In this document: positions 14,656 to 25,302 of the stretch, in pieces
Layout of the letters: the number at the start of each line of letters is the position of its first letter
Numbering within the stretch: position 1 is the first letter of the stretch
Origin: Lachnospiraceae bacterium
GTDB taxonomy: Bacteria; Bacillota; Clostridia; Lachnospirales; Lachnospiraceae
Assembly: GCA_902363665.1 (NCBI GenBank)
Contig: CABJAW010000006.1
Span: 124,001-188,000 of the forward strand
Direction: 5' to 3'
Length of the DNA stretch: 64,000 bases
Made by a program: the position numbers and the translations under genes
Notes under the pieces: generated by a model
The model's input: only the letters and a program-made list of their open reading frames with translations
Databases searched by the model: none
What the model was told of the DNA's origin: nothing

Positions 14656-15860
14656 GTATAGATCTGGAAAGATTCCCATGGAGCGATTCGGCCAACAGAA
14701 TGCTGACATATGTAACTAAAGGCTGGTATGATAAATCCTATGTCGGAAAATGGATATACGAAGTTATGGGCAGAGAGCTTGATCTGGCCACTGTGCATAT
14801 TGAAGAACTTCCATACCAGATGTTTATCGATACAGCTACATGGGGACTTAAATATCATGAGATCAAGTATGGACTGCCCGTAAGAGAAGACCTGTCATAT
14901 GAAGAAAGACGACGGTTGCTCCGTGAAAAGAAAAACACAAAAGCACCAATGACCCCATGGCGAATGGAACAGATTTTAAAAGGCGTGACGGATTATGATG
15001 TCCAGGTTCATGATTGTAATGAGCCGGGACATTATTTTTCTCACCCTAACATATTCAGCGTTCAATTGGAAGGTGAAACAGAGGTAGAACTAGGAGAAGT
15101 TAAGAGTAAAGTCGATAAGCTGAAGCAATCACACACAGTATATCTTCTTTCTGTTATCCTCATGCTTATTGAATGCACAGAGAGCTTTGAACAGAGAGTG
15201 ACGTATCATTCAGATTTTTCATGGTGGAAGTATTCTCTTGATGGTTCCTTCGCTCTTGATGGCAGTATCAATCTGAATCATTGGTATCCGACAGAATTTC
15301 GCCCGGTCTATCCATTTGAAACAGTCGTAACTGAGAACTTTATAGCAGATCGAATTTTCCACCGGATTCCAGATATACATCATGAAAATATATTTAAGCC
15401 TTCCTTTTCCGTACGAAGTGATTTTGTATGGTGGGAAGGTTTTCTTGATGGAAACTTTTCTCTGGATGGAACAAGAAGGCTTGATTCTTGGTATCCGATG
15501 GAAACTTTTATCGGGCATAGGCTGTTTATCGGCAATCAGGAGGCTTTTGAAACGAAACAGTGTATTTCATTGCCTGCTATGATTACTGCTGAGAAAGCTG
15601 ATTTTAGAGGCATACAGAGGGTAATTATGGGCTGGCGTGACGGGAATAAGATTCTGGACGGCAACTGTTTGTTAGACGGGACTTTATTGCTTGATGCAGG
15701 AGAACCACCATATCTGCAGACAGTCCGGATCCGTGCGCCCGTTAAGCATGAAGAAGAAGTAGAGGTCACAATGGTTATTCCTTCACGGGCCGCAAGACTG
15801 GATGGAACGTGTAGGCTAGATGGAAGTGTAAAACTAAATTCAGGAAGGGAGGTCCTTTAA
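14652..15860 (+). CDS. DUF2313 baseplate protein (XkdU-like) with LDG-repeat tail
   Basis: This 402-residue protein is overlapped by the upstream stop (ATGA). The first ~180 residues match YmfQ/XkdU (gpI-like) proteins, including a segment LPVREDLSYEERRRLLREK typical of the family. The C-terminal ~210 residues are an unusual extension with four repeats of the form LDG-x-x-x-LDG-x-x-x-L near residues 195, 264, 334 and 383. The first two are followed by WYP. These repeats may form a beta structure that links the wedge to the tail fibre. XkdU homologues usually end before this extension. Confidence 0.8.
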   Translation: MSIDLERFPWSDSANRMLTYVTKGWYDKSYVGKWIYEVMGRELDLATVHIEELPYQMFIDTATWGLKYHEIKYGLPVREDLSYEERRRLLREKKNTKAPMTPWRMEQILKGVTDYDVQVHDCNEPGHYFSHPNIFSVQLEGETEVELGEVKSKVDKLKQSHTVYLLSVILMLIECTESFEQRVTYHSDFSWWKYSLDGSFALDGSINLNHWYPTEFRPVYPFETVVTENFIADRIFHRIPDIHHENIFKPSFSVRSDFVWWEGFLDGNFSLDGTRRLDSWYPMETFIGHRLFIGNQEAFETKQCISLPAMITAEKADFRGIQRVIMGWRDGNKILDGNCLLDGTLLLDAGEPPYLQTVRIRAPVKHEEEVEVTMVIPSRAARLDGTCRLDGSVKLNSGREVL

Positions 15861-16309: not shown

Positions 16310-17998
16310 ATGTCGTATTTCGATATTTCTGGAGCAACATTTGATGAAAATTTGCGAAAACTGGAAACTTCTGATCCAGCACACGCAGATGTATTTAATG
16401 CTCTTTTAGGACAGCTGATCAATAATGATGTAGCTCTGAAAGAAGCAGTTACAAAATTTGCAGCTTCAAAAAATGAACAAGCATTATTTCTTTTGAACCT
16501 GCATAAAGATGGCAAGAAATATGGAGTGCATTTTGATAATTATGATGTAACTCCATCAAGCAATGGAACCCGGCTTTTTGATGCTGTAGGCATGGCAGCT
16601 GCACCAAGCACAAATACAGTGAGAGCAATAAATGATTTTGACGGAAAAGGATGCTTTGCATATCTGGAAGTCAATGGATCGGTTGATGAGAATGGGGAAT
16701 TTCAAGTTCAGTACATCAAAGACATTGATAATGAGTTTTCTCGGACAAAATACGATACATGGTGTCTGTATTTAACACAGTATGTATATCGTAAATTTGA
16801 CAGTAATGGCGAGGATACCGTTATTTCTGATACCAGACATTCTGCAGAGTGGCTGCCGGAGGGCGGCGCAATCCGACCAGACGGAACAATCCGGCCATTT
16901 GTGGCAATTGCAAAATATATGTCTGGTGACAATGCGGACGGTGTTGCGTCCTCGATTAGTGGTGTATCTCCGAAAAACTACAGCTTCCAGAGTTCCCTCA
17001 CAAAGTTCAGGGCGAAAGGCACGCAGTATTGTGCTGAAACCTCACAGGACTCCGAGAGAATGACAAGACTTATGGAGATTGCCTTTGCAACTCGAAATAG
17101 CCAGTCGGTGATGGCAGGATGCAACTGGTGGTGGACACAGACACCTGCCACAGTACAGGAGAATGATGTGGAACGTATCATTATATCCAAAAGTGCTGCT
17201 AAAGAACTTGTCGTTGGAGGAACTGTTTCCATTGGAAATGCTTCTTCGTTAACAAGCGATAGTAAACCAGAAACAGATAGAGGAAATACTGGCCTCAACG
17301 CAAAGGCCAATAGGGTACGAATCACCAAAATCGAAGACTATGACGATAATAGTTCGGCTGTCTATGTGGATAATGGAGGACAGAAGTTTTCAACAGCATC
17401 AACTACGGTTTCGGGAGTGACGTGCCCGACAATGTTATCTACAATGCCTTGGAATACTGGTGGTTGCGATGACGTGCTTGGTTCCTGCGGATCACCGACA
17501 AGTAACGCCAGTGGAAAAGAGCCATATATTTTGTTTGGTGTGGAGATGTCTTCTGGTTTTTGGGAACCAAAGGGTAACACAGTCATGAAGATTGAGAACC
17601 ATGTTATGCGTCCGTATATCTGCTACGACTGTACAAAAATAACGACAGCTGGCGCAACAACAGAGGACTGGATTGCTCTCGGCTATGTGATTCCGGACAA
17701 TAAAGGAAGCTGGAAATATATTAGCAAGCTTGGGTATTCAGCTGATGATCCAGAGGTTAGATATCCAGTAGAAGTAAATGCTTCTTCAAGTAATGGTTAC
17801 GCTGACGGGTGCTATACAGAGGACCTCGAAAAGGCTGGCGACGGCCAGCGAGAGGTTCTTGGCTCCGGCTACCTGGCCAACGGTACGGTTGACGGCCGTC
17901 GGGCTGCGCCCCTGGGCATTGGGCTCGGTGGCGGCTGGTGGTACTGCGCCGCTCGTCTTTCTGCCTGTGGGCGTTGCGGACGCAGAGCGGCTGCATAA
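16310..17998 (+). CDS. DGR-diversified tail fibre / receptor-binding protein
   Basis: This 562-residue protein with AAGGAGG upstream is the target of the adjacent diversity-generating retroelement. Residues 1-90 are helical and probably join the tail. The central part contains a WWWTQTPATVQEND segment and the C-terminal ~70 residues contain GSGYLANGTVDGRRAAPLGI followed by variable residues GGGWWYCAARLSAC. Such tryptophan-rich endings are typical of the C-type-lectin-like fold that displays DGR diversity. The codons that differ from the template repeat are G541, G542, Y546, C547, L552 and later ones (approximate numbering). The last residues are GRCGRRAAA. Ligand-binding variation at the fibre tip would change host range. 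Confidence 0.88.
   Translation: MSYFDISGATFDENLRKLETSDPAHADVFNALLGQLINNDVALKEAVTKFAASKNEQALFLLNLHKDGKKYGVHFDNYDVTPSSNGTRLFDAVGMAAAPSTNTVRAINDFDGKGCFAYLEVNGSVDENGEFQVQYIKDIDNEFSRTKYDTWCLYLTQYVYRKFDSNGEDTVISDTRHSAEWLPEGGAIRPDGTIRPFVAIAKYMSGDNADGVASSISGVSPKNYSFQSSLTKFRAKGTQYCAETSQDSERMTRLMEIAFATRNSQSVMAGCNWWWTQTPATVQENDVERIIISKSAAKELVVGGTVSIGNASSLTSDSKPETDRGNTGLNAKANRVRITKIEDYDDNSSAVYVDNGGQKFSTASTTVSGVTCPTMLSTMPWNTGGCDDVLGSCGSPTSNASGKEPYILFGVEMSSGFWEPKGNTVMKIENHVMRPYICYDCTKITTAGATTEDWIALGYVIPDNKGSWKYISKLGYSADDPEVRYPVEVNASSSNGYADGCYTEDLEKAGDGQREVLGSGYLANGTVDGRRAAPLGIGLGGGWWYCAARLSACGRCGRRAAA
17855..17968 (+). repeat. DGR variable repeat (VR)
   Basis: The first 75 bases (17855-17929) are identical to the template repeat. 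The next 39 bases differ at 11 positions, and every one of them is an adenine in the template (six to G, three to T, two to C). Only one of 12 template adenines in that part is unchanged. Similarity fades after 17968. The repeat lies at the very 3' end of the fibre gene, the standard place. Confidence 0.93.
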
Positions 17999-18025
17999 GC
18001 CTGGGGGTGAATTGCGACAGCAAGA

Positions 18026-18062
18026 GGGGATCTCCCCATTATTGTTTCCCGGCGTAGCCGGG
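18026..18062 (+). promoter_or_regulatory. hairpins downstream of VR
   Basis: Just after the fibre stop codon there is a short GGGG-ATCT-CCCC hairpin (18026-18037) and a perfect 6-bp stem CCCGGC-GTA-GCCGGG (18048-18062). Hairpins or cruciforms at this place are needed for efficient retrohoming in the Bordetella phage DGR, so these are candidates for the same role. They lack a T-run and are not good terminators. Confidence 0.5.
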
Positions 18063-18105
18063 TGAATAGATTTTAAAATTTAGGACTTACAGCACAGTGG
18101 CTTCC

Positions 18106-18219
18106 GTTCTTGGCTCCGGCTACCTGGCCAACGGTACGGTTGACGGCCGTCGGGCTGCGCCCCTGGGCATTGGGCTCGGTAACAACTGGTGGAACTACGC
18201 CGCTCGAATTTCTGCATAA
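18106..18219 (+). repeat. DGR template repeat (TR)
   Basis: This non-coding copy, 251 bases downstream of the VR, matches it over 114 bases with changes only at adenines. It reads in the VR frame to GLGNNWWNYAARISA and then TAA. Placement between the target gene and the reverse transcriptase is the usual DGR order. The first 75 bases contain adenines that are unchanged in the VR, so mutagenesis appears confined to the 3' third. Only this copy and the VR were found in the window. Confidence 0.93.
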
Positions 18220-18300
18220 TATCGATGTGCTGTATTTCGTTTCCTCAGAGGAAACCCCGAAAGGGCTTGGGCGGAATGCCCGAAATAGACAAACCAGCAT

Positions 18301-18324
18301 GTGACCGACATTTATGTCGGTCAC
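18301..18324 (+). ncRNA. 10-bp hairpin in TR-RT spacer RNA
   Basis: GTGACCGACA-TTTA-TGTCGGTCAC is a perfect 10-bp stem with a four-base loop, placed between template repeat and reverse transcriptase. It is followed by ACCCTG and not by a T-run, so it does not look like a terminator. In studied DGRs the RNA downstream of TR is structured and needed for cDNA priming. A further GGGC-GGAAT-GCCC stem lies just upstream near 18271. Confidence 0.6.
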
Positions 18325-18399
18325 ACCCTGTGGCGGTAGTGGACACAGGAGGGGACTAGTAGTAAAACCGAAAGTCCTTGAAGCAGAAAGAAAGGAAAA

Positions 18400-19749
18400 A
18401 TGAAAACATATTGTAAAGGCCTGGTTGTATCTGATACAGCCAAAATAGAAAATAGCATTGATGATTATTTCCATAATAAATACAAAAAGAATAGCACTGT
18501 ACGCTTCATCTCTGGTTATGCATCGCAGAGCAGAGAATACGTAAGGGAAAACTTTAAACCTGGAAGTTCTTTTTGGAAAGAGACACTTCACTTGTTAAGT
18601 GAGGAAATGGCAGCTAATATTGCGGAAAGAACCATGAAGGAACATATTCTTATGTGGTGTCAAACCGCACCGGCAATCCGTTATACGAAGATTACTGACA
18701 AGGGAAGCGGCAAAATTCGAGATCTCGGATTAGAAACGGTACTTTTCCGATTGTATGAGGCAGTTGCAGGAGATGCTGCAAAACCTTTGTGGAAAGCAAA
18801 ATTTGGAACCTATCAAGTAGCATCTATAAAAGGGAGAGGCCAAAGTTATGGAAAGAAAGCAGTAAAGAAATGGCTTTCTTCTGATGCAGATGGAACAAAA
18901 TATATGACTCAATGCGATATAAGACGGTGTTATCCTTCGATTTCTCATGAAAAGTTGAGGGGATACCTGAAACGGGATCTACATAAATCGCACGAACTTT
19001 TGTATATGTTTATGACTTTTATAGAACTGTACGAAGAGTTCCCGAATCCGGAATCCAAAGACACTATGCGAGGAATTCTCATAGGATCTCCTGTTAGCAA
19101 GGATCTCTGTAATTATTTTCTTTCCTATGCATATCATTATGCAAGTGAAAAACTGGTAAAAATCTCTACCCGCAGAGGGAAGGCACGAGAAAAAAGACTT
19201 ATATCACACGTTATATTTTATGCGGATGATATTGTATTGTTTTCCGGGAATAAGAAAGACGTCCATATGGCACAAAGAATGCTCATAGAATATATGAATA
19301 AGATTCTTGATCTGGATATAAAGCCTGACTGGAAAATGACAAAGGCTATGTATGAAGACAGGAATGGAAAAGCCAGAGGCTCTCTTTTGGACTATATGGG
19401 ATTTCGATTTCATGGAGGAAATACAGTCTCAAAAGGATACCTGGGAAAACAGGTAAAGCATAGAAAAACGTGGGTCACAATAAGAAAACGTATATTTTTG
19501 GCTGCTCGCCGCAAAAGAAAGATATTTTCCGATAAACTGCGTAAGAAAATTCAAGTAAAAATGAAATTTGTACAGAGCGTGGTTTCTCAATTCGGATGGT
19601 TCAAAAGTACGAATATGGCTCATTACCGGAAAAAGAATCGGGTTGATCAACTTATAAAAATAGCTCGAAAAATAGTCAGCGATTATGCCAAGGGAAAAGA
19701 ATATAGCACTGAAAAGTATTATAAAATGTGGAGGAAAAATTATGCATAA
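18400..19749 (+). CDS. DGR reverse transcriptase
   Basis: The product has 449 residues with AAAGGAAAA before the ATG. The catalytic aspartates are visible as D173 in QCDIRRCYPSIS and D276/D277 in FYADDIVLFSG. Motif 4 reads IGSPVSK at residues 228-234, where DGR enzymes usually show IGxxxSQ; the isoleucine is kept and the final Q is K. There is no maturase/thumb X domain with HNH as in group II introns, and the adjacent TR/VR pair proves the DGR context. It copies TR RNA with errors opposite adenine and the cDNA replaces the VR. No accessory Avd gene is seen nearby. The stop overlaps the next start by 8 bases. Confidence 0.93.
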   Translation: MKTYCKGLVVSDTAKIENSIDDYFHNKYKKNSTVRFISGYASQSREYVRENFKPGSSFWKETLHLLSEEMAANIAERTMKEHILMWCQTAPAIRYTKITDKGSGKIRDLGLETVLFRLYEAVAGDAAKPLWKAKFGTYQVASIKGRGQSYGKKAVKKWLSSDADGTKYMTQCDIRRCYPSISHEKLRGYLKRDLHKSHELLYMFMTFIELYEEFPNPESKDTMRGILIGSPVSKDLCNYFLSYAYHYASEKLVKISTRRGKAREKRLISHVIFYADDIVLFSGNKKDVHMAQRMLIEYMNKILDLDIKPDWKMTKAMYEDRNGKARGSLLDYMGFRFHGGNTVSKGYLGKQVKHRKTWVTIRKRIFLAARRKRKIFSDKLRKKIQVKMKFVQSVVSQFGWFKSTNMAHYRKKNRVDQLIKIARKIVSDYAKGKEYSTEKYYKMWRKNYA

Positions 19750-20431
19750 AACGAATTGTCCTGTATCACAGGGAAAAATCACTTATGCTACTTTACCCGA
19801 TGGGACTGCAGATGTATGGATCCGCAAAAACGAAACTCAGCTTCCAGAAAGCGAGGAAGGCCCACAGGGAGTGGAAGCAGATGAAATCTATTTTAAGGTT
19901 ACAGTGGACACTGTAACAAAAGAAGAAATATCTGCAGACATTGACTTCTGGTTCGACCAGTTAAAAGAGAAGGAGGAAGGTCTGAACGCAGATTATCTTT
20001 CTATTGAAACTTATCGTGCAAATAAGAAGAAAGAGATTTCGCAGATTTGCCAGAGTACAGTATTTGCAGGCGTGGACATTTCTATTTCTTCAGGAACAGA
20101 ACACTTTAGCCTTAAAAATGAAGATCAGTTAAATCTCTTTGGAAAACAGGCTCAGCTGACCGCTGGCATCAAAAAACTGGAATACCATGAAGACGGCAAT
20201 CCGTGCCGGTATTATTCTGCTGAGGATATGCAGAAGATTATTAATGGTGCAATGGAATTCAAGAGTTATCACACAACATATGGAAACTCTGTAAATATGT
20301 GGATTAAAGGATGTGCGAAAGCTTCGGAAATCGCCAAGATTGAATACGGAGCGCCGATCCCGGAAGAATATCAGTCAGAAGTTTTAAAGGACTATCTGGC
20401 CGAAATGGCAGCCGACAAGGAGGTTAAATGA
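19742..20431 (+). CDS. DUF4376-like tail-fibre-associated protein
   Basis: The product has 229 residues. I chose the ATG at 19742 with GTGGAGG upstream, which overlaps the RT stop; a more distant in-frame ATG lies inside the RT gene. The C-terminal ~110 residues (QSTVFAGVDISISSGTEHFS to HTTYGNSVNMWI) match DUF4376-type proteins that follow tail fibre genes and are thought to assist fibre assembly. The N-terminal 60 residues resemble a small fibre-tip adaptor. The DGR cassette has thus been placed between the fibre and its helper, or uses it as part of its operon. Confidence 0.65.
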   Translation: MHKTNCPVSQGKITYATLPDGTADVWIRKNETQLPESEEGPQGVEADEIYFKVTVDTVTKEEISADIDFWFDQLKEKEEGLNADYLSIETYRANKKKEISQICQSTVFAGVDISISSGTEHFSLKNEDQLNLFGKQAQLTAGIKKLEYHEDGNPCRYYSAEDMQKIINGAMEFKSYHTTYGNSVNMWIKGCAKASEIAKIEYGAPIPEEYQSEVLKDYLAEMAADKEVK

Positions 20432-20853
20432 ATACTCTGAAGACCATAGGCAGAAACGCTGTGCTTTTCGCTATAGGAGGTACGATTTACTACATGATCG
20501 AACTGATATGGCGAGGGTACAGTTCACTGCCTATGGTACTGGTTGGCGGACTTTGCTTCTTGTTTTGCGGTTCGATAAATGAATTTCTAAGATGGGATAT
20601 GCTCATATGGAAACAGATGTTTATCTGTGCTGTCGGGATAACTGCAATTGAGTTCCTTTCCGGATACATTTTGAATATTGTATTGGGGCTTGGAATATGG
20701 GATTACAGCAATATGCCCTTTAATATAATTGGACAGATATGTCTTCCTTTTACTGTGGCATGGTATATCCTATCTCTATTAGCTATTGTATTGGATGATC
20801 ATCTGAGGTATTGGATATTTGGTGAAGAAAAACCAAGATACAAGTGGAGGTAA
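20428..20853 (+). CDS. four-TM membrane protein, CmpB-like
   Basis: This 141-residue protein overlaps the previous gene by 4 bases. Four hydrophobic segments are visible near residues 10-28, 33-50, 62-88 and 100-122. The pattern GLGIWDYSNMPFNIIGQICL is typical of the small membrane family annotated as ABC-type CmpB permease domain. In phages such genes occur next to the lysis module. A role in host envelope modification or lysis control is possible but not shown. Confidence 0.6.
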   Translation: MNTLKTIGRNAVLFAIGGTIYYMIELIWRGYSSLPMVLVGGLCFLFCGSINEFLRWDMLIWKQMFICAVGITAIEFLSGYILNIVLGLGIWDYSNMPFNIIGQICLPFTVAWYILSLLAIVLDDHLRYWIFGEEKPRYKWR

Positions 20854-21974: not shown

Positions 21975-23423
21975 ATGAAAACGAATATAATGGGAACTGC
22001 AGTTGCTACGGTCCAGCAGATGCAGTCATATATACAGAAAGTTAATCCGGCAGTACCTAAATCCGTAATCGATATGGTTGAATATTATATATTAGAAGGA
22101 AAAACGGAAGGAGTAAGGGGAGATATCGCCTTTGCACAAAGTTGCCTCGAAACAGGTAATTTCACATTCAATGGTTCTGCCGTAACATTGGACCAGAACA
22201 ATTTTGCCGGAATCGGCGTTACAAAAAATGGTATGAAAGGGAATTCGTTCTCTCATCCATGGATCGGCATCCGGGCACAGATCCAGCATCTTAAAGCATA
22301 TGCATCTAACGAAAAACTGTACGGTGTATGCGTGGATCCTCGTTTCTGTTATGTGAAAAGAGGAATAGCCCCATATGTTGAATGGCTTGGGATACAGGAA
22401 AATCCACAGGGCGGAGGCTGGGCCGCAGGGAAGAATTATGGATCAAAGATATTGGAAATTCTGGCGAAGATAATTGCGATGCCAGAAGCGAATAAGGAGG
22501 ATGTTACAATGAATCTTAACACAAGTTTAATCAGCAATAACAACAGCTATGCAAATCAGGTACCTAAATACATCGTTATCCATAATACAGATAACTTTGC
22601 TAAAGGAGCAAATGCAAAGGCACATGCAAAGGCCCAGCATGACGGAAATTTCTCCGGCTACTCTGCTCATGTATACGTTGATGATACCGAGGCTTATCAG
22701 GCAACTCCATTCGACAGAGGCGCTTGGCATGTCGGCGTTAACTACGGAGGTGGTCTTTTCGGAATTTGCAACAACCACAATTCCATTGGCATTGAGATGT
22801 GTGTGCAGGCAGGGTATAATTACGAAAAAGCGTTCCAGAACACTGTTGAGATCTGCAAGATGCTGATGAAGAAGTTTGGAATTGACGCAAATCATGTGGT
22901 ATCCCACTATGATGTGTGTGCGAAGAATTGCCCTTCTGCAATCCGGGCAAAAGGTGACTGGAACCGTTTCAAGCAGCTGATCGGTGCAAAGACGGCAGCT
23001 ACAACTGTAGATAAATATTACAGAATCCGGAAAACCTGGGGCGACAGTAAGAGTCAGATCGGAGCGTACAAAAATCTTGAAAACGCAAAGAAAAACTGGA
23101 AAGAAGGTTACACAATCTTCGATTGGAACGGAAAAGCCGTATATCCAGAACAGAAAAAAGACACTTCATCAAGCGAAACAAAAGTTAGCCTGACCGAGAA
23201 ATTAAATATTCAGCTTCCAGTGCTGCAGTCCGGAGCAGAAGGTTCGGCAGTACGTTGCCTGCAGGCAATACTCGGAGTTGCCGTTGATGGAGATTTTGGA
23301 AAGAATACCAAGACGGCACTTAAAACATTCCAGAAGAATGTCGGCATCGATGATGATGGTTGCTGTGGCCAGAATACATGGAAGAAAATTGCTGACCACA
23401 TGAATGCAAATACATTCAAATAA
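21975..23423 (+). CDS. two-enzyme endolysin: glucosaminidase plus amidase
   Basis: This 482-residue endolysin has its start after AGGGGGATATT. Residues 1-165 form an N-acetylglucosaminidase domain (FAQSCLETGNFTFNG, QNNFAGIG). Residues 197-335 form an N-acetylmuramoyl-L-alanine amidase_2 domain with zinc-ligand H203 in YIVIHNTDN and VVSHYDVCAKNCPS near the end. A connecting domain around 345-395 (YYRIRKTWGDSKSQIGAYKN) is SPOR-like. A peptidoglycan-binding_1 domain occupies about 415-480. An internal ATG with an excellent ribosome site lies between the two catalytic domains (next entry), so a 304-residue amidase form may also be made. Confidence 0.93.
   Translation: MKTNIMGTAVATVQQMQSYIQKVNPAVPKSVIDMVEYYILEGKTEGVRGDIAFAQSCLETGNFTFNGSAVTLDQNNFAGIGVTKNGMKGNSFSHPWIGIRAQIQHLKAYASNEKLYGVCVDPRFCYVKRGIAPYVEWLGIQENPQGGGWAAGKNYGSKILEILAKIIAMPEANKEDVTMNLNTSLISNNNSYANQVPKYIVIHNTDNFAKGANAKAHAKAQHDGNFSGYSAHVYVDDTEAYQATPFDRGAWHVGVNYGGGLFGICNNHNSIGIEMCVQAGYNYEKAFQNTVEICKMLMKKFGIDANHVVSHYDVCAKNCPSAIRAKGDWNRFKQLIGAKTAATTVDKYYRIRKTWGDSKSQIGAYKNLENAKKNWKEGYTIFDWNGKAVYPEQKKDTSSSETKVSLTEKLNIQLPVLQSGAEGSAVRCLQAILGVAVDGDFGKNTKTALKTFQKNVGIDDDGCCGQNTWKKIADHMNANTFK
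22494..22511 (+). promoter_or_regulatory. internal in-frame translation start in endolysin gene
   Basis: AAGGAGG at 22494-22500 is followed 8 bases later by ATG at 22509, which is in frame as codon 179 of the endolysin. The protein from here starts MNLNTSLISNNNS and carries the amidase and wall-binding domains only. Internal starts making shorter endolysin isoforms are known in several Gram-positive phages. Confidence 0.65.
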
Positions 23424-23864: not shown

Positions 23865-23886
23865 AAAGAGGGGATTTCCCCTCTTT
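23865..23886. terminator. bidirectional terminator between convergent genes
   Basis: AAAGAGGGG-ATTT-CCCCTCTTT gives a 9-bp stem flanked by A/T runs on both sides. It separates the + strand HTH gene from the - strand cyclotransferase-like gene. Confidence 0.75.
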
Positions 23887-24328
23887 ATTTCACTTCTTTT
23901 AAATTATAATCCAATGAATCGTACAAATAATCTGTATCAAATCCCATATCTTTGTAACCTTGCAATACAGTTTTAACATAACGGCTAGATGGCCTTCCCA
24001 CAGTGGCTGAGTCAGGCAGGAGGTATATCATAGCCTTTTTCCTAGTGCCGTTTTTTAATTGTACAAATACATTTCTCTTTTTATAAAATCTCGGATATCC
24101 CTCGTACAGATCAAGAGCCTTCTCATTTTTGCTATCGATATTCCAAACAGCAACAGGAACCCTACTTCCTTTTTGCCTTTTGACGGTTGCATAAGATCCT
24201 GTGTGGCTTCCTCTGTAAAGCAATTTCCAATTTATCAGATATCCGGTAAATGCGACTGTCGCTCCAGGACAACGGTATGACATTTGCTGTACGTTAAGAT
24301 TACTTCCGTATGCTACATATAAACTCAT
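23885..24328 (-). CDS. gamma-glutamylcyclotransferase (AIG2/GGCT)-like protein
   Basis: The product has 147 residues. The N-terminal YVAYGSNL (residues 4-11) is the substrate-binding loop of the GGCT/AIG2 fold and E76 in DLYEGYPRFY is the expected catalytic glutamate. These enzymes release 5-oxoproline from gamma-glutamyl amines or peptides. It lies 47 bases downstream of the amidoligase on the same strand, so the two are probably one operon. Iyer and colleagues predicted that GGCT proteins trim or remove peptide tags made by phage amidoligases, and this arrangement fits that idea. Confidence 0.85.
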   Translation of the reverse strand: MSLYVAYGSNLNVQQMSYRCPGATVAFTGYLINWKLLYRGSHTGSYATVKRQKGSRVPVAVWNIDSKNEKALDLYEGYPRFYKKRNVFVQLKNGTRKKAMIYLLPDSATVGRPSSRYVKTVLQGYKDMGFDTDYLYDSLDYNLKEVK

Positions 24329-24375
24329 GGTATTTCCTTTCTCCCCGTAAAGCCGTTAGGTCAGCCGATTTGTGA

Positions 24376-25302
24376 TTAAGCTACATGTTCTGCATTTGCA
24401 TTCTCACGAAGCTGTTTCATCATGTGAAGTCTGCATGTTTTGAACTCATCACCATAAAGTCCAAGTCTGTTTGTGAGGATATTATACATTAAAGTGACTT
24501 TTTTCTTTGCTGTGTATCCGTTCATGGTTCTGAATACGACTTTATCATCAGATTCGATGGACCATGCAGAGAGTGCTAAACAAAACTGTACATATGCTTT
24601 GATCTTTCCTGCATGAAGAGTGCTGTTAAAAAGTCTGAATTCGACAGTTCCTTTCTGGAAGAAGCTATGAAGATTCAATGCGTGGTATCTTGTAGAGTTA
24701 TAATGCTGATGATTGATTCCACCACAGTAGCCATCGTTTGCTGGGCTGTACCAAATTTTCTCAACGGAATCGGTTGTGATGTTTTTGTCTTTTTTCATGG
24801 TATCAAGTAAATTCTTGCAAACTGGCTGACACCAACGATATTTTCTGTCACCTACTGCAAGCGCATCATAAATGATTTCCTGTCTGCTATACATGAAATT
24901 TACCAGACGGCGAAGAGAAGTTGCGGTATGGTTCGCTCCGTCTACATGAATATGGATTCCGCATGAACTGTGAGGAACTCCACCGATTTCTCTGAATTTA
25001 CGGATGATTGCCTGCAGTGTATCAAGATCTTCGTATTTAAGAACCGGTGTTACGAATTCAACTCTGTATTCGTCCATGTTCTCGGTTCCAACTTTACGAA
25101 TTGGATGAATTGAGCTGTCTCGCATTACCTTCCATTTTCTTCCCTGTGAATCCTGAATGGTTCTTGTCTGGTAGCAAGTGCGATCTGGTCTGGAAGCTGC
25201 AGTTCCGATAATTTCTGCAACTGCATCCGCAGCCATTTTTCTTGAAATACCTGTAAATTCAACCTCAACACCGTAGTTCTGTTTCTTTAAAAGTTCTGAC
25301 AT
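24376..25302 (-). CDS. amidoligase-family (COOH-NH2 ligase) enzyme
   Basis: This 308-residue protein has AGGAGG 6 bases before the ATG. Motifs of the glutamine-synthetase-like amidoligase family are visible: GVEVEF at residues 11-16, CGIHIHVD at 114-121, RYHALN at 205-210 and EFRLFN at 221-226. The family joins a carboxylate to an amine with ATP, modifying proteins, wall peptides or small metabolites. It is the first gene of a two-gene operon with a GGCT-like partner on the strand opposite the lysis genes. Position at the prophage end suggests a function expressed in the lysogen. The substrate is unknown. Confidence 0.85.
   Translation of the reverse strand: MSELLKKQNYGVEVEFTGISRKMAADAVAEIIGTAASRPDRTCYQTRTIQDSQGRKWKVMRDSSIHPIRKVGTENMDEYRVEFVTPVLKYEDLDTLQAIIRKFREIGGVPHSSCGIHIHVDGANHTATSLRRLVNFMYSRQEIIYDALAVGDRKYRWCQPVCKNLLDTMKKDKNITTDSVEKIWYSPANDGYCGGINHQHYNSTRYHALNLHSFFQKGTVEFRLFNSTLHAGKIKAYVQFCLALSAWSIESDDKVVFRTMNGYTAKKKVTLMYNILTNRLGLYGDEFKTCRLHMMKQLRENANAEHVA

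What the first reader, a model, noticed from the sequence alone, without database searches (positions are those of the whole stretch)
16310..19749. Complete diversity-generating retroelement in a contractile-tail prophage
The fibre gene ends in a variable repeat (17855-17968) matched by a template repeat 251 bases downstream (18106-18219). Bases 17855-17929 and 18106-18180 are identical, and the following 39 bases differ at 11 sites, every one an adenine in the template (six to G, three to T, two to C). A reverse transcriptase with D173 and YADD follows. Adenine-specific change is the mark of DGR mutagenic homing, so this prophage can alter its receptor-binding protein and its host range.
Basis: partly seen in the sequence, partly recalled or inferred. 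Interest (0 to 1): 0.95.

Follow-up and report, generated by a model that had tools for sequence, protein, structure and literature searches.

The report
Phage's mutation template was itself overwritten
A bacterial virus carries a cassette that rewrites a likely tail-fibre gene from a master copy thought never to change, but here two thirds of the master copy match the rewritten gene and have lost most of their changeable letters, so the copying likely ran backwards once and would have locked in part of a fibre variant.

Summary
[quoted passage not shown] It diversifies in nature: 120 of 120 listed relatives carry different VRs. But the 75 identical bases need another reading. In sister prophage L004 (97% over 11.3 kb) the TR is adenine-rich. 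The window TR differs from it at 12 of 110 sites, 11 of them adenines, always with the window VR's letter. 4317 of 4320 relatives' residues (codons 517-552) are reachable from L004's template by A-to-N change; 699 are not from the window TR. So the window's template is derived; its first 50-75 bases were most likely overwritten by VR-to-TR transfer. Reachable variants fall from about 1.5e14 to 5e7. Two TR reading frames in the protein database (P0244, P0245) carry other altered tracts, so it probably recurs; among 32 close DGR pairs window/L004 stands alone in extent. Papers describe the TR as unaltered. Separately, this RT clade has SK where DGR RTs have SQ, yet keeps adenine-specific change.

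The parts
16310..17998 (+). Target gene: likely tail fibre, 562 aa, VR at its C terminus
   Evidence: no Pfam match; phrog_17147, unknown function, 1.7e-153; C-terminal model best matches the DGR variable protein TaqVP
17855..17964 (+). Variable repeat (VR)
   Evidence: 120 distinct VRs in the 120 listed relatives
17950..17998 (+). Constant 3' end of VR and gene end (IMH-like): same in window and L004, fixed AA/TC difference from TR
   Evidence: constant in the 120 listed relatives except one R559K (residue tally)
18026..18037 (+). Small hairpin GGGG-ATCT-CCCC after the stop codon; counterpart visible in the nine relatives printed, imperfect in L008
   Evidence: the whole stretch folds little better than shuffles (z -1.55)
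18048..18062 (+). Second GC-rich hairpin between VR and TR
18106..18215 (+). Template repeat (TR)
18121..18170 (+). Overwritten tract of the TR (smallest extent; largest 18106-18180): 11 adenines of the L004-type template replaced by the letters of the window's VR, plus one shared C-to-T
18088..18096 (+). 5' arm (TACAGCACA) of a stem that would close the TR RNA
18226..18234 (+). 3' arm (TGTGCTGTA) of the TR-closing stem
18216..18399 (+). Structured spacer RNA between TR and RT
   Evidence: minimum free energy z -3.59
18400..19749 (+). DGR reverse transcriptase, 449 aa, YADD active site, motif 4 GSPVSK

Best explanation
This is a DGR whose template repeat now carries the window's own VR sequence over its first 50-75 bases, most likely because that tract was copied back from VR to TR, against the normal direction. 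Shown: the DGR anatomy; adenine-specific VR change in sister and population; adenine-rich templates in the sister and two outgroups; 12 of 12 window TR changes equal to the window VR. Inferred: normal mutagenic homing from an adenine-rich TR first made the present VR; then one non-reciprocal transfer (gene conversion-like) wrote the VR's 5' part into the TR, its 3' edge in the shared stretch 18171-18180; the 3' part of the TR, its closing stem and its IMH-like end stayed. Predicted: later homing from this template would keep the residues of codons 523, 527, 532, 534 and 536 fixed and vary most at codons 524, 541, 542 and 545.
For: L004 against window: 97% identical over 11.3 kb, about 0.5% differences in the fibre gene before the VR and in the RT gene, none in the spacer; TR 12 differences in 110, 11 on A (P 1.9e-7 for 11 or more of 12 on A), all 12 equal to the window VR including a non-A C-to-T. 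Polarity: at the 11 sites the TRs of relatives L008 and L007 each have A at 10. No listed VR shares more than 5 of the 10 tract codons with the window. Had the VR been made from the present TR, six adenines stayed unmutated beside six of seven mutated ones; 2 of 120 listed VRs keep the same six, judged from residues (product estimate 0.019). Recurrence: TR frames P0244 and P0245, with TR-only ends on both sides, have 4 of 4 and 5 of 6 changes at A codons, in tracts of different extent. Control: in 31 other close DGR pairs 0-4 TR differences involve A (23 of 67 in sum) while VRs differ at 2-19 sites.
Against: Only one sister DNA locus is held; the window's own assembly is not and no reads can be seen here. 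Equality of the new TR letters with the own VR is not diagnostic alone: in other pairs a TR's non-A letter also equals its own VR nearly always, as normal TR-to-VR copying would give. The direction rests on the six kept adenines (0.019) and on parsimony, not on a seen intermediate. Some other pairs also have a high A share in few differences (4 of 6, 4 of 7). The 5' edge offers only 15 bases of shared sequence, short for ordinary recombination. P0244 and P0245 are single members, their own VRs unread, and could be chimeras. The C-to-T cannot be polarised: L008 has C, L007 T.
Confidence: 0.78

Rival explanations
1. Self-homing: a mutagenised cDNA landed in the TR itself (RT-dependent), and the new 5' tract then reached the VR by a later homing without further change there.
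For: 11 of 12 TR changes are A-type; the cDNA would have perfect homology to the TR; literature describes homing with 8 or more matching bases (PMC3240598 section 12) and no RecA contribution in a reconstituted system (PMC12875486 passages). Equality of VR and TR fits this reading as well.
Against: Needs two unusual events; the TR's 3' seven adenines are untouched; six adenines kept in the VR has an estimate of 0.019.
Confidence: 0.1
2. Assembly, polishing or PCR artefact: the TR was filled with VR reads.
For: VR and TR are near repeats 251 bases apart; the own assembly is not held and reads are not available.
Against: The altered tract is joined to TR-only sequence within 15 bases on the 5' and 10 on the 3' side; the surroundings are near-identical to L004; two other altered TR frames have TR-only ends.
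Confidence: 0.06
3. One reading: the TR is original, and the VR was mutated only in its last third.
For: 0 of 6 adenines changed in bases 1-75, 6 of 7 in bases 76-99.
Against: L004, L007 and L008 templates are adenine-rich there; 699 of 4320 listed residues are unreachable from this TR.
Confidence: 0.03

Closest known systems
Bordetella phage BPP-1 DGR (mtd-VR-avd-TR-brt)
   Same: Target with 3' VR, TR, RT, adenine-specific mutation, hairpin after VR, structured spacer (BPP-1 features from passages of PMC3240598 and PMC12875486)
   Different: No avd-like Pfam match in the eight neighbouring ORFs scanned; order VR-TR-RT; RT motif 4 has SK; the TR is not invariant. Papers say the TR 'remains unchanged' (PMC3240598, passages) and 'remains unaltered' (PMC10907252, passages)
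Thermus aquaticus variable protein TaqVP (PDB 5vf4), a DGR target
   Different: 16% identity over the aligned part; Foldseek E only 0.062; no sequence match in the PDB at E 0.01
Gene-conversion antigenic variation (pilE/pilS, vlsE; recalled, no call)
   Same: Non-reciprocal transfer between a variable expressed copy and a silent copy
   Different: There the silent copies are the normal donors; here the silent template would be the recipient

Membership tests
Diversity-generating retroelement | Reverse transcriptase next to a TR/VR pair | tested here: met
Diversity-generating retroelement | VR differs from TR at template adenines | tested here: met
   9 of 9 in window, 20 of 20 in L004, first 111 bases, fixed 3' differences included
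Diversity-generating retroelement | VR varies among relatives at those sites | tested here: met
   120 distinct VRs of 120 listed; 4317 of 4320 residues reachable from the L004 TR
Diversity-generating retroelement | VR at the C terminus of a fold seen in other DGR variable proteins | tested here: met
Diversity-generating retroelement | VR 3' end (IMH) with fixed differences from TR | tested here: met
   AA/TC at positions 102-103 in both strains; function not tested
Diversity-generating retroelement | Hairpin after VR | tested here: inconclusive
   two hairpins in the fold and counterparts in relatives, but the stretch as a whole has z -1.55
Diversity-generating retroelement | Accessory protein Avd | tested here: inconclusive
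   no such Pfam match in eight neighbouring ORFs; some DGRs lack it (recalled)
SQ-motif DGR reverse transcriptases | (I/V/L)GxxxSQ in RT domain 4 | tested here: not met
   IGSPVSK here; all 66 rows of its clade have K
BPP-1-type DGR behaviour | TR stays unaltered | tested here: not met
   a reported behaviour of DGRs, not used here to define them

The most novel reading that the evidence does not exclude
DGR templates can learn: VR-to-TR back-transfer is a recurrent process that writes parts of successful receptor-binding variants into the template, fixing those residues through later rounds of homing and focusing mutation on the rest, a form of genetic assimilation in a system held to be one-way.
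Probability: 0.15. Interest if true: 0.88.

Novelty: new variant of a known kind. Interest (0 to 1): 0.6.

Why it matters
DGRs are described as one-way: a constant template writes a variable target. A template that takes up target sequence means the source of diversity can erode, or can store part of a selected variant. That bears on why DGR templates differ, on how long a DGR stays useful, and on the use of DGRs as directed-evolution tools, where template stability is assumed. The SK reverse transcriptases also bear on the published proposal that the SQ motif sets adenine-specific mutagenesis.

Tried and rejected
Full-length fibre fold: pLDDT 53.6, not used. RT search by peptide pattern in genome contigs and an exact VR-end pattern there: nothing. 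RT in 145 relatives: 3 distant matches; in 397 family genomes: none at 1e-40; RT profile in 398 genomes of the phylum: 4 with a match at 1e-30. blastn of the locus in phages: none; tblastn of the RT there: 28% at best. Exact TR-end and VR-end patterns in viral contigs found only the L004 record. Tract sharing between listed VRs, which descent from overwritten templates could cause: only pair P0114/P0120 exceeds shuffles, no support for or against. P0246 first looked altered, but its changes are not A-type: taken as another intact template. Host not identified; human-gut origin not shown by any search. That back-transfer is unreported rests on paper searches (open-licence full text only) and on passages of PMC12875486, PMC3240598, PMC6642488, PMC8144416, PMC11792537, PMC6199706, PMC10907252 and PMC3521204; none was read whole. 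One search's ungapped comparison and the base and codon columns had register errors and were replaced.

Full report
OBSERVATION. The letters are as reported. VR 17855-17964 and TR 18106-18215 are 110-base repeats 251 bases apart. Positions 111, 113 and 114 lie past the repeat; positions 102-103 differ in the same way between VR and TR of window and L004, so they are fixed. Six differences are mutagenesis products.

WHAT SURROUNDS IT. The window's left part holds contractile-tail genes: tail sheath, tape measure, baseplate proteins, Mu Gp48-like and tail-collar proteins and an amidase/glucosaminidase endolysin. The VR ends a 562-aa gene without a Pfam match. The RT follows TR and a structured spacer (z -3.59). 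No avd-like family was found in the eight ORFs scanned. A 9-bp inverted repeat brackets the TR; in 27 of 65 loci (window included, relatives not independent) the best stem is reached by at most 5% of 200 shuffles, and its letters differ between loci; in 38 it is not.

IS IT AN ACTIVE KIND OF DGR? The best 120 of 1175 fibre matches were listed (7997 candidates scored). All 120 have different VRs. Within residues 512-562 variation is confined to codons 521, 523, 524, 526-528, 532, 534, 536, 537, 541, 542, 545 and 546, apart from three single rows: L517R, A533V and R559K (residue tallies). 4317 of 4320 residues at codons 517-552 can be made from L004's template by A-to-N change; the three that cannot are R517, V533 and one H546. 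The fibre cluster P0004 stands for 3497 sequences and the RT cluster P0123 for 556. Three scans of viral contigs with RT alignments returned 80, 80 and 54 loci, partly the same contigs. Of 217 loci held 169 have a repeat pair with at least 75% of differences on A in one copy; 106 remain after removal of copies with identical VR, TR and next 100 bases.

THE TEMPLATE WAS OVERWRITTEN. L004 (IMG/VR record IMGVR_UViG_2920277478_000005) is 97% identical to the window over 11.3 kb, with no difference in the spacer. Its TR is adenine-rich: 17 A in the first 75 bases against 6 in the window. The window TR differs from it at 12 sites, 11 of them A in L004, and at all 12 it has the window VR's letter, including a C-to-T. 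Chance of 11 or more of 12 on A is 1.9e-7. At these 11 sites relatives L008 and L007 have A at 10 each. So the window TR is derived. The altered tract spans at least 18121-18170 and at most 18106-18180.

DIRECTION. That the TR's new letters equal the own VR would also follow if a changed TR had been copied to the VR; in other pairs a TR's non-A letter equals its own VR nearly always. What speaks for VR-to-TR is that the VR kept all six adenines of bases 1-75 while six of seven changed in bases 76-99; 2 of 120 listed VRs keep the same six (product estimate 0.019), and that one transfer explains all 12 identities. Self-homing of a cDNA into the TR followed by transfer to the VR needs two unusual events and is kept as the main rival.

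RECURRENCE AND CONTROL. A protein search with the TR's own 40-aa reading frame, window and L004 forms aligned, had 4 candidates and all 4 matched. All have the TR-only start MAS and the TR-only AARISA. P0243 (6 members) is the intact template; P0246 (4 members) another template whose changes are not A-type; P0244 (1 member) has 4 of 4 changes at A codons in the middle; P0245 (1 member) 5 of 6 at A codons in the 5' part. Control: 32 locus pairs with 88% or more identity after the TR. Window/L004 has 11 A-type TR differences of 12; the other 31 pairs have 0-4, 23 of 67 in sum, the highest shares being 4 of 6 and 4 of 7, with VRs differing at 2-19 sites. The pairs share loci and are not independent; A-type was counted in either direction; exact copies had been removed. 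One or few A-site TR changes in other pairs may be short events of the same kind; this was not resolved. So overwriting of this extent is rare in what is deposited.

CONSEQUENCE. By counting reachable amino acids per codon, the L004 template allows about 1.48e14 proteins and the window template 5.18e7 (24 against 13 adenines in 96 bases). Whether this is loss or useful narrowing is not known.

REVERSE TRANSCRIPTASE. Motif 4 reads IGSPVSK. In a quick tree of 105 of 121 RTs (those with a readable motif and 380 or more residues) the window's clade of 66 is all K (SH-aLRT 99); the other 39 are Q 29, K 10. Of the 106 loci the motif could be read in 68; nine are SK, with 122 of 124 VR/TR differences on A. 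These loci had been chosen for 75% or more A, so the count shows that SK and adenine-specific change occur together, not how often. PMC3521204 (section 10 read whole) proposes that SQ drives adenine mutagenesis; PMC4244168 (passages) cites SQ as characteristic and takes deviants as probable inactivation or sequencing errors. The SK loci speak against SQ being needed.

LITERATURE. PMC3240598 (passages and section 12) and PMC10907252 (passages) state that the TR stays unchanged; PMC12875486 (passages) finds TR-VR recombination rare in a reconstituted system. I found no report of VR-to-TR transfer in the searches named under Tried and rejected; the library holds open-licence papers only.

VERDICT. 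A known kind of element, confirmed, with an unusual and well-supported state: a template partly replaced by its own product.

Noticed in passing
18400-19749; alignment A1; L004, L007-L012: RT motif 4 is GSPVSK instead of GxxxSQ throughout a 66-row clade; nine SK loci chosen for an adenine-biased repeat pair have 122 of 124 differences on A.
   Followed up: partly
18088-18096 with 18226-18234, and relatives: An 8-11 bp stem whose letters change in step brackets the TR in many relatives (27 of 65 at p 0.05 or less); it would close the template RNA.
   Followed up: partly
L016 and L017: Two prophages of one genome with identical TR; their VRs share the 5' mutations and differ at 4 sites only, towards the 3' end, as if one homing event replaced only the 3' part.
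   Followed up: no
23885-25302, minus strand: An AIG2-like gamma-glutamylcyclotransferase gene beside an amidoligase gene, just after the endolysin, near the right end of the stretch shared with L004.
   Followed up: no
15200-15800, 20000-20600, 22400-23400, 24200-24744: Blocks of raised divergence between window and L004 in an otherwise near-identical 11 kb: probable mosaic exchange.
   Followed up: no
P0189 and P0194: RT relatives listed with beta-clamp domains (PF00712, PF02767) or an amidase domain (PF01510): fusions or assembly joins.
   Followed up: no
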